Source: Craspedostauros australis (lineage: Eukaryota > Bacillariophyta > Bacillariophyceae > Mastogloiales > Achnanthaceae). Taken from it: a stretch of DNA of 64,000 nucleotides. Below are positions 43,899 through 51,000 of this stretch, piece by piece (position 1 is the first letter of the stretch; each line of letters starts with the position of its first letter). The notes below the pieces were generated by a model. The model was given only the letters and a program-made list of their open reading frames with translations, made no database searches and was not told the origin of the DNA. The translations under genes and the position numbers were made by a program. The stretch lies in NCBI GenBank assembly GCA_026770025.1, contig JAMXDE010000013.1:868001-932000 (forward strand). The letters are read 5' to 3'.

Positions 43899-45897
43899 TC
43901 ACGCCCCTTGATCTCGAGGTAGACCTGCATAGAACAGAGTTGTGACAAATGATGTGAGTTCTGGCTTTGCCAGTGCCTTTGTGAGCATATCCGCAAAGTT
44001 CCGTGTTGATGGGACGTAGACTGGTACAAGGATTCCAGCTCCCACAGCCTCCCGGACTCTGTGGAATGATATTGCCACATGCTTCTTTTGTAGCAAGCTG
44101 TCTGCAATGGTCGTGTTCGATATCACTGCAGCATTGTCGCCGAACGTGATCGTTGGCGCTTTGACTGTGACTCCCAGCGATCGGAGTGCATACCGGAGTG
44201 CAATGATTTCCTCTGTTGCTGAGCGCATTGCATTGAATTCTGCTCCGTATGTGGATGTTGCGACTGACGTCTGTCGTTTGCTGGAGAAGTGTACTGGGGT
44301 ACGCCCCAGGAATATGATGATGCCGGTGTTCGATCTCCGTGTGACCAGATCATGTGCATGGTCCGCATTGACGAAGGCGCACATCTGGATCTCAGGATGT
44401 ATCGCTGCCAGTGCCTGATCGTCAATGTCCTCGGTCGCTTTGGGGTACTCTTCCTTCATCTGTGCAACCATCTCTGGGTTGGGCGATTCTGGATTGAAGT
44501 TCTCGAATGCGATGGGCTTTGAGTCAATCATGGTTCTGAGCATTGATTTGTTCTTGAGGTATCCCCATATCTTGAGTGCTCATGTGAGATGCCCTTTCCC
44601 TGGTGTCGACGTGAAGCGTGAGAGAGAAGAGGTTGCAAATGCGACGTCAAAACGTCCGAGCTGTACAACCCAGTTCAGCATGCCGATGAGCTGCTGGAAC
44701 TGTTGTTGCTCGTCAGGTGTTAGTAGTGGCATATCATCTGTTTCTGGATGATCCTTGCTCTTCATGGGTACATGTTGATCATGCAGTTCCCCATGGAGCC
44801 GTTTGATCTTGTCCAGAGCATTGGAAATGTATTTGTTGCATCCGACGCTCCATTTTCCTTTTGCGTTCCTGGAATAATCGTTGCCAAGGTAGTACTTCAG
44901 TGATCCAATGTCTTTGACTGTGTAGACTTGTTGGATTGTTTTCATGTACTGATCTGGGTCTTTGGCGACTATCTTGAAGTCGTCGACGTGGGTGCAGATG
45001 TAATCGTAGCCAGAGTCGTCTCTGTGCTGGATCCATACATCTTGATCGTGCCGTGATGGCATGAATCCCATTGATGAGAGTGTGTTAGCGAAGCGTGTAT
45101 GGAATCTTTGAGCGCTCAACCGAAGACTGTACAATGCTTTCTTGAGCACAATGACTTGTCCTTCTTTGTCATCGAATGCCTTTCCTGCTGTCGTGTAGAT
45201 CTTCTCATTGGTGTACGCATTGATGAATGCGTTGCCGATGTCGCTGCATAGCTGTTGCAGGTTGTTTGCATCTCCTATCGCATCGAGGATGCGAACGCTT
45301 GTCGACTTGACGGTTGATGAGTAGACTTGGATGTTATCAGCCAGCTAGATGAGATGTCCGCCTGCTACCAAGCGCCCCTTGCGTCACAGGTCTTGCTTGA
45401 CCGCGAATATGAGTCGGAGTTTCATGCTCTGGTAGTCTGCTGGTGGTTGGTATGTCGATGGGTGGAATTTGAAACAGTCAAGTTCGATCAATGCGTCGAT
45501 CTCTTTCTTCGCCGCGTCTCTCCATAGGTGATTCCCATTGGCTTCATCCAGTTGCAGTGCATGTTTCATGTTGCATGGGACCTCAACACTGTATTGGTAT
45601 ACAGTTGCAAAGTAGTCTCGTTTCGGCTTTTTCTTGCCTGGGCGGATTCGTCTGGTGATGATGATGTTGTCATTCTCATCCATTGTGAAGGCTCGAGTTT
45701 GCTCGATTCTGCGGATTTTGTGCCTGATGGCTCGCAGTGCATGTTTCGCCCAGTTGCATAGGACTTGCGATTGTTGATTGTGTCGACCGTTGCGTCGTGG
45801 CTCGTTGTCAATGATGTATCTTGCTATCATTTCTGGATGGTTTGCTTGGATCACGTCATATCCACGAGGAAATTCTGTCGCGATAGAGGACCCCTGA

Positions 45898-45952
45898 TGT
45901 CTCAGGAGACAAACTTTTTGACCTTTGTGCGAGGGCCTTGTCTCCTGAGACA
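45898..45952. repeat. Left subterminal palindromes (two copies)
   Basis: TGTCTCAGGAGACA at 45898-45911 and TGTCTCCTGAGACA at 45939-45952, each a self-complementary hairpin core and each the reverse complement of the other. In DNA transposons such subterminal repeats often bind transposase; that role here is inference. Confidence 0.8.
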
Positions 45953-46384
45953 AAACCAAAAATAACACGACGTTTCCTCGCGATGGGAAAAGTGGTCGAC
46001 CAGTTGGACTAAAACTAGAATTGGACGCTCGTCTCGTCGCACATTTTCTTCGTGTATTTTCTTCGTATTTTTTTGTTGTCCACGTTTTCACATAGTAATG
46101 GCGTAGTTTCGGACACTCGGTAGGTGTTGTCGTAGTTTGCATTGGATATAAAGTTGATTGCTCTCTATTTTTAATGCAATACCATTGCTACTAACACACT
46201 GGCAACTACCATAATAAGAATAACACAGAGATTAAACCCACTTATGAGGCTGTGCTGGTGGCGCTATTCTCCGCCTCCTTTCGACTTCGTGCGGAGCACG
46301 AAAGGAGCACAGAATCTATGCTTTGTGTGTGTATGCTGTGTATGTGTCTTCTCCTTGCGTGCTGCCAAGGGAGTCTTTGCCAGT

Positions 46385-46413
46385 GGGGGGGGGGGGGGGG
46401 GGGGGGGGGGGGG
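46385..46413. repeat. Uninterrupted 29-base G run
   Basis: Positions 46385-46413 are all G on the plus strand. It lies inside the inverted-repeat element. The true length may differ, since homopolymers are prone to both slippage and assembly error. It could form a G-quadruplex. Confidence 0.9.
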
Positions 46414-46616
46414 TGAGCTTGTTGTCTACATTTCAGCCACTTGAGCAGGGCGCCAGAGGCGGCCGGTTTGTGTAGCGTCAGCACGGCTTGCTCCACCCAT
46501 ACCGTGACCTGTGCCATCTGTGCCTCGCCGGCCAGCGCCGTATGTAGCTGTCATAGATGCTTGGTGCGGTCCTGCTCAAGGCAAAGACGGAGTGATTCTG
46601 CCCTGTCATGTAGGGC

Positions 46617-47140
46617 TTACACCATCCCAGCTTCAGCCGAGTCTTGACCTTCGAACAATGTCTCGTTGCATGCTCCCCATTGCTCCCAGGCATTGCGCCA
46701 AATGCAATGTATGAGCTGCCTGGACCACTTGTCTTCCAATTTCCAAGGCTGTTGCTGCTGCAGAAATTTGCTCTGCATCGGTTCCCACTTCCTGTCTAGG
46801 AGTCCTTTTCCGAGCGCCTGTGGACCCACAGCAAACTGCTGCCACACTGCCTCATGGAGAGAGCTGCCCAGGCTGGTAGCCCTGAGATGGACCGACCCCT
46901 CAAGCTGGCTTTGCAGGATGGCGGTCATATTGATGGCAATTTCAGGCTTCGTGGGATATCTCCGCATCCAGCGCCGCAACTCCCATAAATGCCTCGTCGA
47001 GATTTTACCCGGCCCTCCCCTGCACACTGCCAGAAGTGCAACGTATCCTTGCAGCCTCCGCAACTGGGGCATTGGTCTGACACACTGGCAACTACCACTT
47101 GTTTTTCTTCACCAATCCAGTTCCAGAATATCACCAGCAA
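46617..47140 (-). pseudogene. Broken fragment resembling the C-terminal region of a retroelement protein
   Basis: On the minus strand, a Cys/His cluster (CPSCGGCKDTLHFWQC) is followed in an adjoining frame by a helical Trp-rich region ending IHCIWRNAWEQWGACN. This pairing resembles the tail seen in several reverse-transcriptase-encoding proteins of diatoms, probably non-LTR type. The fragment is clearly not intact and has no reverse transcriptase beside it. It lies within the inverted-repeat DNA element, either captured cargo or a remnant of an earlier insertion. The assignment is tentative. Confidence 0.35.
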
Positions 47141-48004
47141 CTGCTTTCATTTCATTACGTTTTCATTGCAGCTGTGGCCCTTTCCGTTCCTACTTGCTTT
47201 TGTTCTGTGGCTGTCGCAGGTCTCACACATCGCGTCAACACTGCATTTATACAAATATCTTGCGCCTTGATTGATTTCTGAATCAGTGTTACACTCCTTT
47301 GCAGTTGGATCCAATCTCATACAACGGCGCAACTGATTGGGAGTTTGTATTCATGCTCTTGTCGTCCAAGAGGAGGCTTCTTATTCTACCCAAGCATATG
47401 ACTGATATGTAGTGAATGATGGAGTATTGGTTTTCAATGCAAGAGGGATGGAATGAATAGTAGCTTGCACTTGCACGGTATTGCGGAGAATATTACAGAT
47501 GGTGAACTTGCTATGATGGATGGGCGCAGACAAGCATCAATCCTTGCACTCGCCACAACACTGGAGAGATGGGACGAAGCAAGCAAGCGAATGGACGTGC
47601 CCTTCCAACAGAGCAGGTGCAATAATAGTCAACAAAGCAAGCAAACAGTAAGGTTGGTTTGCACGATGAACGTACACAACAGCAGAGGGGACGAAGATAC
47701 CTGACTCTTGCCCCCTCAATCCCATAGCAAGCAAGTACAGCAACAGCTAGACAACACCATGCATATTCTACACAAGAACTATGTCATTCATGTGCTTTGT
47801 AGTGAGTAGTTTAGTCAGATATCAACGAAGCCAGCATATCACTGCTGATGGTCAAAAAGCACGGGAAAGTACGCAGTATTTGGGTTCCTAGTCGGAAAAG
47901 CACAGGAGACAATTTGCGGTTTTGGGTGTTGTTGTTTTTGGTTTTACTCGATTGAGTCCGCTGTCTCTCGGCTCCGTGTTAATTTACCGCACTATTTTTG
48001 AGTT

Positions 48005-48087
48005 TGTCTCCTGAGACAACAATCTTGGTCCACATCCGGGTGCCTTGTCTCAGGAGACAAAAAGGCCTGATTTTGTCTCCTGAGACA
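48005..48087. repeat. Right subterminal palindromes (three copies)
   Basis: TGTCTCCTGAGACA at 48005-48018 and 48074-48087, with the complementary form TGTCTCAGGAGACA at 48046-48059. Spacing is 41 and 28 bp start to start. Together with the left pair they mark both ends of the inverted-repeat element. Confidence 0.8.
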
Positions 48088-51000
48088 TGAAAATTTCCTC
48101 GTGGATATCGGAATCATTGTGTTTCAGTATTGGACCACTGCACATTGAAGTGTAGATGTCCGTCTCGGAATGCGTGGCTGAGGATGGATTGGACTGCCAA
48201 GTCGTCAGATTTCGCGTTTTCGACCTGGTTTCGGAACAGCTCGTCATGCTCTCGCTCGATGAGAGAGGACTCACGCCCCTGAGAGCGGTGCTCTGGAGGA
48301 TCTGGCATTGCTGTGACTTCGGAGTCATCGGTCTCCTCAGAGATGTTACCTGTGGATGTGTCGCCGTCATCATCCGAGATGACGCCGTGCGCATTATGTT
48401 CCAGCTTGTCGCCGTCATTGGGTATGATATTGGGTTGACTGAACCATCGGTCAGCCGTACCTGCTGGTTTATTGGAAGCGGATACGCCCCTGACCTCCAT
48501 TGTCGTCGGCTCCGGTGGACCCGCCGCTGCCCCTGATTGCACAGCAATCGCGTCGATGGCCTCACGGACCTGTCGAGCGAGCTCCGCCGGCAATGTCTTG
48601 GTTCTGGCGCGTTCGCCGGACTCGCCGCGCGTAGTGGTGTGGATGATATCCAGTTGAGCAATGCGGTGTATCTCCTCGTCTGTGATGCGTGGAGGGATGG
48701 CGTCCTTGACAACACGTGGCTTGACGATGTTGCATACAAGCGCGGTGCTCTTCGTGATGTCATCGCCTCGTGGCGACCAGATGTTGTAGGTGAACGGATC
48801 TCCGTGATTCCATGCGATGCCAAGGAAGTACTCTGGCTTGAATGGATGGTTGGGAAATTTGGTCATGGGTTCGAAGAACCATACGGGTTGGAAGAACGCG
48901 AAGCGAAACATTGAGATGTCAGGAGTGTTCCCGCGAAGAATCCCAATCGGAGTACGCCATTGGAGGCTTGCCTTCGCCGTGTAATTCCATGCGTCGATGG
49001 CATGTAGCACAGCGTAGCACCAGAATGCGAGTGGCTCCAAGGCCGCCCACAGTAGCTGGTATGCATGCCGCTTGACATCGCTGATTGCCCGTTCTGCGTG
49101 GTTCTGGTTCTGGTTCATTGGCACGGTGAACTGGTGTTTGATCAAATATCGTGTGGTCACCGCCTTCCATGCCTTGCCCGATTGCACCAGTTGGGACACA
49201 CTTGGTCCGGGATCCACCCGCGACTCAATCGTCCATGTTGCGTACACGGTACCCGGTATCCGAACCCGATACTGCAATGAAAGGCTACCGCGCGCATGGT
49301 ATATAGTTGAACCACAATCCATGCTCTGCTCACCCTCCAGCTCATGCAACCGTGCCACCTGTTCAGCTAACCATCTTGCAAATCCTGCAGGCATCTTGAA
49401 GCATATCCATACCCATGGATCAAGCACTGCTCTACGGATGGGACTACTGAACAGCTGGGCGTGTGCAGAACCATCACGGCATGTTGCTGTACAACACAAA
49501 CGGCTCAAGCACGACAGCATCAACCCTGCCCTTTGACTCGATCGTCCTGTCCACAGTAAGCTTAACACATAAAACAAGCAATCAGAAACAATCTTCACAG
49601 CTTACTTTCGAGTCTACTACAGTTACATCATCATCTGAAACAGCTTTGTTCTCAACATCAAACGGTGTCAAAACCGGTTGAAGGACAGATCATCCACCTG
49701 ACAACGTGCAAAAGACACGGAATACCAACTGCACCTGTGAATTTTCCGATACGAGTAGATCCGGAGCGCCGACGCAAACGATGAAGTCCGCGAGCGCCCC
49801 TGGCGCCATGGCCTCGCGGCTCAGTGGCTTCGCCCAGATGAATTTCGATTGGTTGTGCGAGAAGAGCTGAAAGCATTTGTAATGCCGGATGGATTGAACC
49901 GTGAAGAAGAACATGTCCGTGTCGACTCTGCCATTGATTCGTGTGGGTTGCAGCACGCCTTCCCGCTGTGCCCGATACTGCCGCGGTATGATTCTTGACT
50001 CTGCTTCGATCGGAGTATCCGCCAGCTGAGTGGATGCCGCCATTGTTTTCTCCACCACGTGTGGTGGAAGGTGTCGGAATTTTTGTGTGAAATCGATCCG
50101 ACCCGCATTGCGTCGCAGACGCTGATGTCTGTCGCATATGATGATATGCTTCGCCGTCGCCATCTCGTGGGATGTCGGCTTTCTGATGGGAATTCGGAGC
50201 GTGTTGCCGTCATGGTTCTCCAGTGGTAAGCTGATAGCACCCAATGAGACCCGCTGCTGTCCCTGATGTTCAATTAGGTGATCGTAAATGTTCAGTCCGG
50301 ACGCGCACATATGATGTTTGTTAAACAGTGATTACGTCTGCTGTGGATGCTTGTCGAGAGCCACGTAGTTCGCTTTGATGAGGGCCACGCCGCCTGATAG
50401 AGGCTCGTATGCTGCCACTGCGTCGACCATCTGGAATGTCTCGATTGGTGAGTCCATCGTCGCCCCTCGGGCACGAAACTCTTGTTGGTGTGTATGGGTC
50501 ACCTCCCAGCCTGATGCATGAACAATGTCTCCGTCCGCCCCTGAGTCTAGGATGATAATGCCTTGGCTATTGTTCGTTACTCTGGCCCTTCGGATGCAAT
50601 GCTTCACTGTCGGGTGGGTTGTGCACGGACGGGACTCTTGTGGTACCTCCGGATGTGCACGTCCGGGCACTCCCGCTGCGGTCGTCACGCTCGCCCCCTA
50701 CAGTCGCAGAGTTTGAGGTGTATGACAATCTCCGACTGACGGCGAGTTGTGCCCGTCTTTGATTGTCAAGAACCGGCGTTCCATGGTCCTTGGGTGCCGG
50801 GTCGTCCGGTCTTGTGGTCGCCCGTGTGAGGACTCTTGGGCCCTCTTTGGGTCATCGGCAACTCGAGGTTGCGGCCGTACTCTGCTGGTTTGTTGCGCTT
50901 GAGGGTTTCCTCATCGATTGGTTTCCCGGTGTTGCGGAAGTGACGAGACGCCTCGACGAGGAGCACTTGAGTGCTCACCGGCATTCGTCGGAACACGGAG

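What the first reader, a model, noticed from the sequence alone, without database searches (positions are those of the whole stretch)
45858..48108. Possible new DNA element with clustered palindromes at both ends
A perfect 17-bp terminal inverted repeat encloses 2.25 kb that interrupts an old copia element. Five copies of the 14-bp near-palindrome TGTCTC(AG/CT)GAGACA lie just inside the ends, two left and three right, and nowhere else that I noticed. The two forms are reverse complements, so each copy is also a hairpin core. I recognise no transposase and no matching superfamily signature.
Basis: partly seen in the sequence, partly recalled or inferred. Interest (0 to 1): 0.72.

Follow-up and report, generated by a model that had tools for sequence, protein, structure and literature searches.

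The report
Jumping gene with nuclease-bearing partner
The 2.25-kb piece is a non-coding passenger DNA transposon, and the same genome carries its apparent engine, a piggyBac-like transposase that seems to have a second DNA-cutting enzyme built into its middle, an arrangement that my paper searches did not turn up.

Summary
Its terminus occurs 44 times in the 74.8-Mb genome (reversed-pattern control 0); six other copies match end to end. Empty sites for three insertions show precise insertion with a 4-bp ATAT duplication, so the 17-bp repeat is ATAT plus a 13-bp inverted repeat.

The window copy is non-autonomous. A 5,233-bp copy on contig C50 shares its ends (94-96%) and encodes, in three predicted exons, a DDD transposase of roughly 1,400 aa. 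Motif order, D1-D2 spacing, CC ends, 4-bp target and a C-terminal cysteine-rich region resemble piggyBac. Between the second and third D lies a YqaJ-like PD-(D/E)XK nuclease, active-site residues invariant in 8 of 8 proteins and under purifying selection. No Pfam family matches; profile comparisons fall in register but are not significant.

The palindromes lie at about positions 22, 50 and 91 of the gene-side end in all five related families examined, with compensated arm changes, as expected of sites bound by paired C-terminal domains. Fusion of D2 and nuclease is in one open frame; joining to D3 and all activities are inferred.

The parts
45858..48108 (.). Non-autonomous element, both ATAT target copies included
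   Evidence: Six other end-to-end copies at 90-96% identity; empty site in copia paralogs
45858..45861 (.). Left copy of the duplicated target ATAT
   Evidence: 16 paralogs span the joined flanks; 10 read, each with exactly 4 nt at the site: ATAT 7, GTAT 2, GTAG 1
48105..48108 (.). Right copy of the duplicated target ATAT
   Evidence: Same as the left copy
45862..45874 (+). 13-bp terminal inverted repeat, left (CCACGAGGAAATT)
   Evidence: Perfect match to the right end
48092..48104 (-). 13-bp terminal inverted repeat, right
   Evidence: Perfect match to the left end
45898..45911 (.). Subterminal dyad, position 41 from the left end
45939..45952 (.). Subterminal dyad, position 82 from the left end
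48074..48087 (.). Subterminal dyad, position 22 from the right (gene-side) end
   Evidence: about the same position in the five families examined
48046..48059 (.). Subterminal dyad, position 50 from the right end
48005..48018 (.). Subterminal dyad, position 91 from the right end
45858..46037 (+). Left end shared with the coding copy on C50 (95.6%)
   Evidence: element positions 1-180
47972..48108 (+). Right end shared with the coding copy on C50 (94.2%)
   Evidence: element positions 2115-2251
46191..47097 (.). Probable nested insertion (46212-47076, 865 bp) between 21-bp direct repeats that match at 20 of 21
   Evidence: interior resembles 22 other places at 66-71% and the four shorter copies lack it

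Best explanation
The segment is a non-autonomous cut-and-paste DNA transposon whose engine is encoded by 5.2-kb relatives with the same ends. The partner protein works like a piggyBac transposase. Its DDD core would cut at the CC ends and join them to an ATAT target with a 4-base stagger, leaving ATAT duplicated. Its C-terminal cysteine-rich domains, two per dimer, would bind the TGTCTC..GAGACA dyads, three on the gene-side end and two on the other. Between the second and third catalytic D it carries a YqaJ-like PD-(D/E)XK nuclease. My preferred role for that domain is processing the broken or hairpinned DNA ends during excision. SHOWN: mobility, ATAT duplication, shared ends, nuclease and second D in one open frame, conserved residues, purifying selection, compensated dyads. 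INFERRED: splicing to the third D, piggyBac kinship, nuclease identity and role, dyad binding.
For: Copies and ends. Empty sites for three insertions. A tandem pair on C45 shares a single ATAT. Coding partner in L009. Two introns with GT..AG borders at the same codons in 8 of 8 proteins. Catalytic residues invariant in 8 of 8: first D, second D and nuclease G-H-x-x-E, D, E-x-K, third D. Nuclease spacing is identical in 8 of 8 and D1-D2 is 77 in 7 of 8 (81 in L047), against 75 in the five piggyBac proteins measured before that script stopped. dN/dS of the nuclease core is 0.07-0.18 in four close pairs, within the range of the transposase parts, 0.05-0.29. Dyads. [quoted passage not shown]
Against: No Pfam transposase or nuclease match even at E 10, none in solved structures. 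hhalign against the genome's own piggyBac proteins is in register but not significant: 31, 8 and 13 of 200 shuffles reach the real score for exons 1-2, exon 3 and the core, and 95 of 200 for the whole protein. Against YqaJ: 9 and 23 of 200. Several dyads in other families are imperfect; by the count the L045 gene-side end (0.39 of shuffles reach it), the L038 end (0.11) and the L045 far end (0.07) do not stand out. The target is ATAT, not TTAA. No transcript, structure or activity data.
Confidence: 0.74

Rival explanations
1. The element is mobile, but its transposase belongs to another or an unnamed DDE superfamily; the piggyBac likeness is convergence of a 4-bp target and short motifs.
For: No Pfam match and non-significant profile comparison; target ATAT and third base A or G after CC differ from piggyBac's TTAA and CC[C/T]T.
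Against: Three D motifs, the GT and V(L/M)xVST landmarks and the GGSD/GGVD motif align in order; D1-D2 spacing nearly equal; C-terminal cysteine-rich region and asymmetric palindromes as in published piggyBac ends.
Confidence: 0.3
2. The inserted domain is not a nuclease but an unrelated insertion that happens to show G-H-x-x-E, D and E-x-K.
For: YqaJ comparison is not significant; no PF09588 match among the family (one search finds one place, C25, elsewhere).
Against: Two segments (QG..WF..R..TS and ASVDFL..GD..EMKT) align to YqaJ proteins in the right order; residues and spacing invariant in 8 of 8; purifying selection.
Confidence: 0.25
3. The duplication is 2 bp (TA inside A|TA|T) rather than 4 bp (ATAT).
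For: Sequence alone cannot separate the two: each gives the same occupied and empty sites; one terminus reads CTATCC.
Against: All 22 ends of the 11 complete copies read bear ATAT outside CC (whose search pattern included ATAT, so deviant ends could be missed); CC ends with a 4-bp target suit the piggyBac-like layout.
Confidence: 0.25
4. The palindromes act as DNA or RNA hairpins rather than as protein-bound dyads.
For: Arms are complementary and compensated.
Against: Six-base arms round a 2-nt centre make poor hairpins; fixed positions from the ends suit protein binding; piggyBac precedent.
Confidence: 0.1

Closest known systems
piggyBac superfamily (insect piggyBac, bat piggyBat)
   Same: DDD order and D1-D2 spacing, CC-starting short repeats, 4-bp AT-only target duplicated, C-terminal cysteine-rich region, asymmetrically placed subterminal palindromes (PMC2872659, PMC2533014, PMC11707139, passages)
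   Different: ATAT instead of TTAA; no Pfam DDE_Tnp_1_7 match; about 680 residues between D2 and D3 (104 in piggyBat by its D309 and D413, 124 in this genome's piggyBac) with a nuclease-like domain there; two introns
ISL2EU (PHIS superfamily)
   Same: The eukaryotic DNA transposon group reported with a YqaJ domain (PMC4482050, passages)
   Different: There YqaJ is a separate ORF, the transposase has THAP and HTH domains and the target is A|AT|T; here the nuclease shares one open frame with the second D, and the empty site is 4 nt ATAT
KolobokP
   Same: Transposon that pairs a DDD/E transposase with a nuclease (PMC9587614, passages)
   Different: His-Me finger nuclease on the other strand as a separate gene, long terminal direct repeats

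Membership tests
piggyBac superfamily | TTAA target duplication | tested here: not met
   ATAT at three empty-site comparisons
piggyBac superfamily | Terminal repeats of 12-19 bp starting CC[C/T]T | tested here: not met
   13 bp and starting CC, but CCAC, CCAT or CCGT follow; definition from PMC2872659 passages
piggyBac superfamily | DDE_Tnp_1_7 (PF13843) profile match | tested here: not met
   No match with spliced L041 or with single exons; the genome's 160 PF13843 matches (list cut) show no overlap, by eye, with the 20 transposase loci cut out
piggyBac superfamily | DDD triad in piggyBac-like motifs and spacing | tested here: inconclusive
   In register, D1-D2 77 against 75, third D in GGSD against GGVD; profile score not above shuffles
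piggyBac superfamily | C-terminal cysteine-rich domain | tested here: inconclusive
   Invariant C289, C296, C299, C307, C310, C315 in 8 of 8; only a weak zf-HIT match in 1 of 8, E 0.12
piggyBac superfamily | Hairpin intermediate and precise excision | not testable with these tools
   Needs biochemistry
ISL2EU | AT duplication in an A|AT|T target | tested here: not met
   Empty sites hold four bases, ATAT
ISL2EU | Separate ORF with a YqaJ domain | tested here: not met
   Second D and nuclease motif share one open frame, for example in L025, L028 and L041
ISL2EU | THAP and HTH domains in the transposase | tested here: not met
   No such Pfam match at E 10
YqaJ / lambda-exonuclease nucleases | Active-site motif E, D, E-x-K after a W..R..T.S segment | tested here: inconclusive
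   Residues present and invariant in 8 of 8; profile comparison in register but 9 and 23 of 200 shuffles as good
Kolobok | TTAA duplication and 5'-RR termini | tested here: not met
   ATAT, and termini start CC; definition from PMC9587614 passages

The most novel reading that the evidence does not exclude
A new superfamily-level lineage of eukaryotic cut-and-paste transposons, specific for ATAT, in which one polypeptide holds two metal-dependent DNA-cutting sites: an RNase H-like DDD core and, in the place of the usual insertion domain, a YqaJ-type exonuclease that processes the ends or the donor break. Its end-binding dyads diverged between families in step with the protein while keeping their positions.
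Probability: 0.5. Interest if true: 0.8.

Novelty: new variant of a known kind. Interest (0 to 1): 0.62.

Why it matters
YqaJ proteins travel with ISL2EU transposons, and what such additional ORFs do is stated to be unknown (PMC4482050, passage). A transposase with the nuclease inside its own catalytic core would make that question directly testable by removing one active site at a time. The dyads that keep position while changing sequence give a natural series for the coevolution of a transposase with its binding sites.

Tried and rejected
ISL2EU was my first guess (D...DRGY plus a YqaJ motif) and was dropped when the target, the fusion and the passages of PMC4482050 disagreed. Relatives outside this genome: none in viral contigs with three alignments, none there with the terminus, none in genome contigs with exon 2. 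Family libraries: searches gave only weak unrelated matches, apart from zf-HIT at E 0.12 in 1 of 8. Solved structures: nothing relevant. Of nine joined flanks (40 of 454 candidates scored), two (L009, L015) had a full-length uninterrupted match, L045 matched only in halves, and I saw no uninterrupted match for the other six. In one search a text search for the 21-bp repeat in the four shorter copies found nothing, so their pre-insertion state rests on the alignment. Paper searches: (listings); passages read in PMC4482050, PMC2872659, PMC9587614, PMC12730594, PMC12477816, PMC2533014, PMC11707139 and PMC12324416; no paper was read whole. In none of these did I see a transposase with an internal YqaJ-like domain; subscription journals and Repbase are not held.
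Full report
What is there. The window lies in an unnamed 74.8-Mb eukaryotic genome, contig C11. The claimed features are all present: a perfect 17-bp inverted repeat at the ends and five TGTCTC(AG/CT)GAGACA sites, the only ones in the window with up to 1 mismatch (expected 0.34; 0 of 100 shuffles reach five).

It is mobile. The whole segment matches 63 places (a lower bound); besides itself, six cover 1-2251 at 90-96% identity and one covers 75-2251. The terminus ATATCCAYGAGGAAATT occurs 44 times with 0 for the reversed pattern. TGTCTCNNGAGACA occurs at 83 places with 1 for the control; of the 50 places listed, 44 have the AG/CT centre and lie in copies of this family, 6 do not. Eleven complete copies were read at both ends, the window's included; all 22 ends read ATATCC (the pattern searched included ATAT; two of the eleven, L013 and L014, share flanks in opposite orientation and may be one insertion). 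With 3 mismatches allowed the pattern gives 547 places against 30 for the control, one of the listed ones starting CTATCC.

Target duplication. Joining the window's flanks round a single ATAT finds 39 matches, of which 16 run through the junction from base 3 to 273. Ten of these were read: 10 of 10 align without a gap, with four bases at the site (ATAT 7, GTAT 2, GTAG 1). Two further insertions, the coding copy on C50 and the copy on C34, have a full-length uninterrupted match each; read out, these show ATAT and ATCT, and a second paralog of the C50 site shows ATAT. A tandem pair on C45 shares one ATAT. The duplication is therefore ATAT, though TA within A|TA|T would look the same.

The engine. 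Copy L009 (C50, 5,233 bp) shares only positions 1-180 (95.6%) and 2115-2251 (94.2%) with the window element. It carries three long minus-strand frames of 380, 677 and 451 aa. The 677-aa frame has 95 matches in the genome, the best others at 93% and then 57% downwards. Comparison of eight loci gives three exons and two short introns (94-119 and 126-149 nt) with GT..AG borders at the same codons in 8 of 8. The spliced products are 1,400-1,691 aa counted from the open frame; the start codon was not determined. Exon 1 ends with TLDDDKVH; exon 2 has MADRGYN, later QGDHLWF..R..TSTS, G-H-x-x-E and ASVDFL..EMKTR; exon 3 has WN..KGGSD and a cysteine-rich C-terminus. The acidic residues and the E-x-K are invariant in 8 of 8.

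Kinship. D1-D2 is 77 residues in 7 of 8 (81 in L047), against 75 in the five piggyBac proteins of this genome that were measured; D2-D3 is 676-683 in 7 of 8 and 981 in L047, against 124. hhalign places D1, D2, the GT and VST landmarks and GGSD/GGVD in register with piggyBac, but shuffled templates reach the same score in 31, 8 and 13 of 200 for exons 1-2, exon 3 and the core, and in 95 of 200 for the whole protein. Against YqaJ proteins (one from this genome, ten from phages) the two nuclease segments align in the right order, with 9 and 23 of 200 shuffles as good. As a negative comparison, the nuclease stretch against piggyBac gives 123 of 200. No Pfam match supports either assignment. I therefore say that it works like piggyBac and do not file it as a member.

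Selection. In four close pairs dN/dS of the nuclease core is 0.121, 0.077, 0.066 and 0.175; the other parts range from 0.045 to 0.288. In the four more distant pairs synonymous change is at or near saturation.

The palindromes. Seven gene-side ends from five families were compared. The dyads stand at 22/50/91 in the window and L009, 21/50/91 in L045, 22/50/91 in L038 and L047, and 22/51/90 in L040 and L041; the other end has 41/82 in the window and L009 and 41/81 in L045. The sequence differs by family: TGTCTCAGGAGACA, TGCGTCAGGACGCA (L038), GGACTGAGGAGTCC (L047). Several are imperfect (1-2 mismatched arm pairs), and in the count three of ten ends do not stand out (0.39, 0.11 and 0.07 of shuffles). 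On the 11 distinct 14-mers, oriented alike, 83% of cells are paired and the covariation score is 0.364 against 0.157 in shuffles (1 of 500 as high); the number of pairs with a change on both sides, three, is not unusual (277 of 500); all slid versions score lower. Related sequences can exceed shuffles without selection, so this is support, not proof. In published piggyBac structures the palindrome is bound by the two cysteine-rich domains of a dimer, the piggyBac palindromes are placed asymmetrically, and piggyBat has three on one end only (PMC11707139, passages). The layout here, three on one end and two on the other, fits that.

Mechanism. By analogy with piggyBac (PMC2533014, passage): nicking at the element ends, hairpins over the four target bases, opening to four-base overhangs and joining to a new target. 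I propose that the internal nuclease trims or opens ends, or chews the donor break; no result here tests this.

Host. Silicon transporters (PF03842) match at 88 places, 32 of them above 700 bits, so the host is a silicifying eukaryote; its name was not determined.

Noticed in passing
G000, for example C11:710408-712021 and C11:852576-854189: 88 matches to the silicon transporter family PF03842, 32 of them above 700 bits, which seems very many for one genome.
   Followed up: no
window 46191-47097: Inside the element an 865-bp piece lies between 21-bp direct repeats (20 of 21 alike) and holds a run of 29 G; it resembles 22 other places at 66-71%. It looks like a nested, perhaps retrotransposed, insertion that was later carried along.
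   Followed up: partly
G000:C11:1526404-1537988: A copy of the element split by about 9.3 kb, with element positions 1639-1646 present on both sides, perhaps an 8-bp target duplication.
   Followed up: no
L047 and 22 places in G000: A distant family with terminus ATATCCGTAAGGAATTTTTCGGGACTG at 22 places (control 0), whose transposase has a long low-complexity stretch before the nuclease motif.
   Followed up: partly
G000, listed: A large set of piggyBac-type proteins matching PF13843 (160 matches) coexists with this family in the same genome.
   Followed up: partly
L068 (G000:C25:34400-35400): A single PF09588 (YqaJ) gene outside the transposons, similar to phage exonucleases at about 30% identity.
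   Followed up: partly
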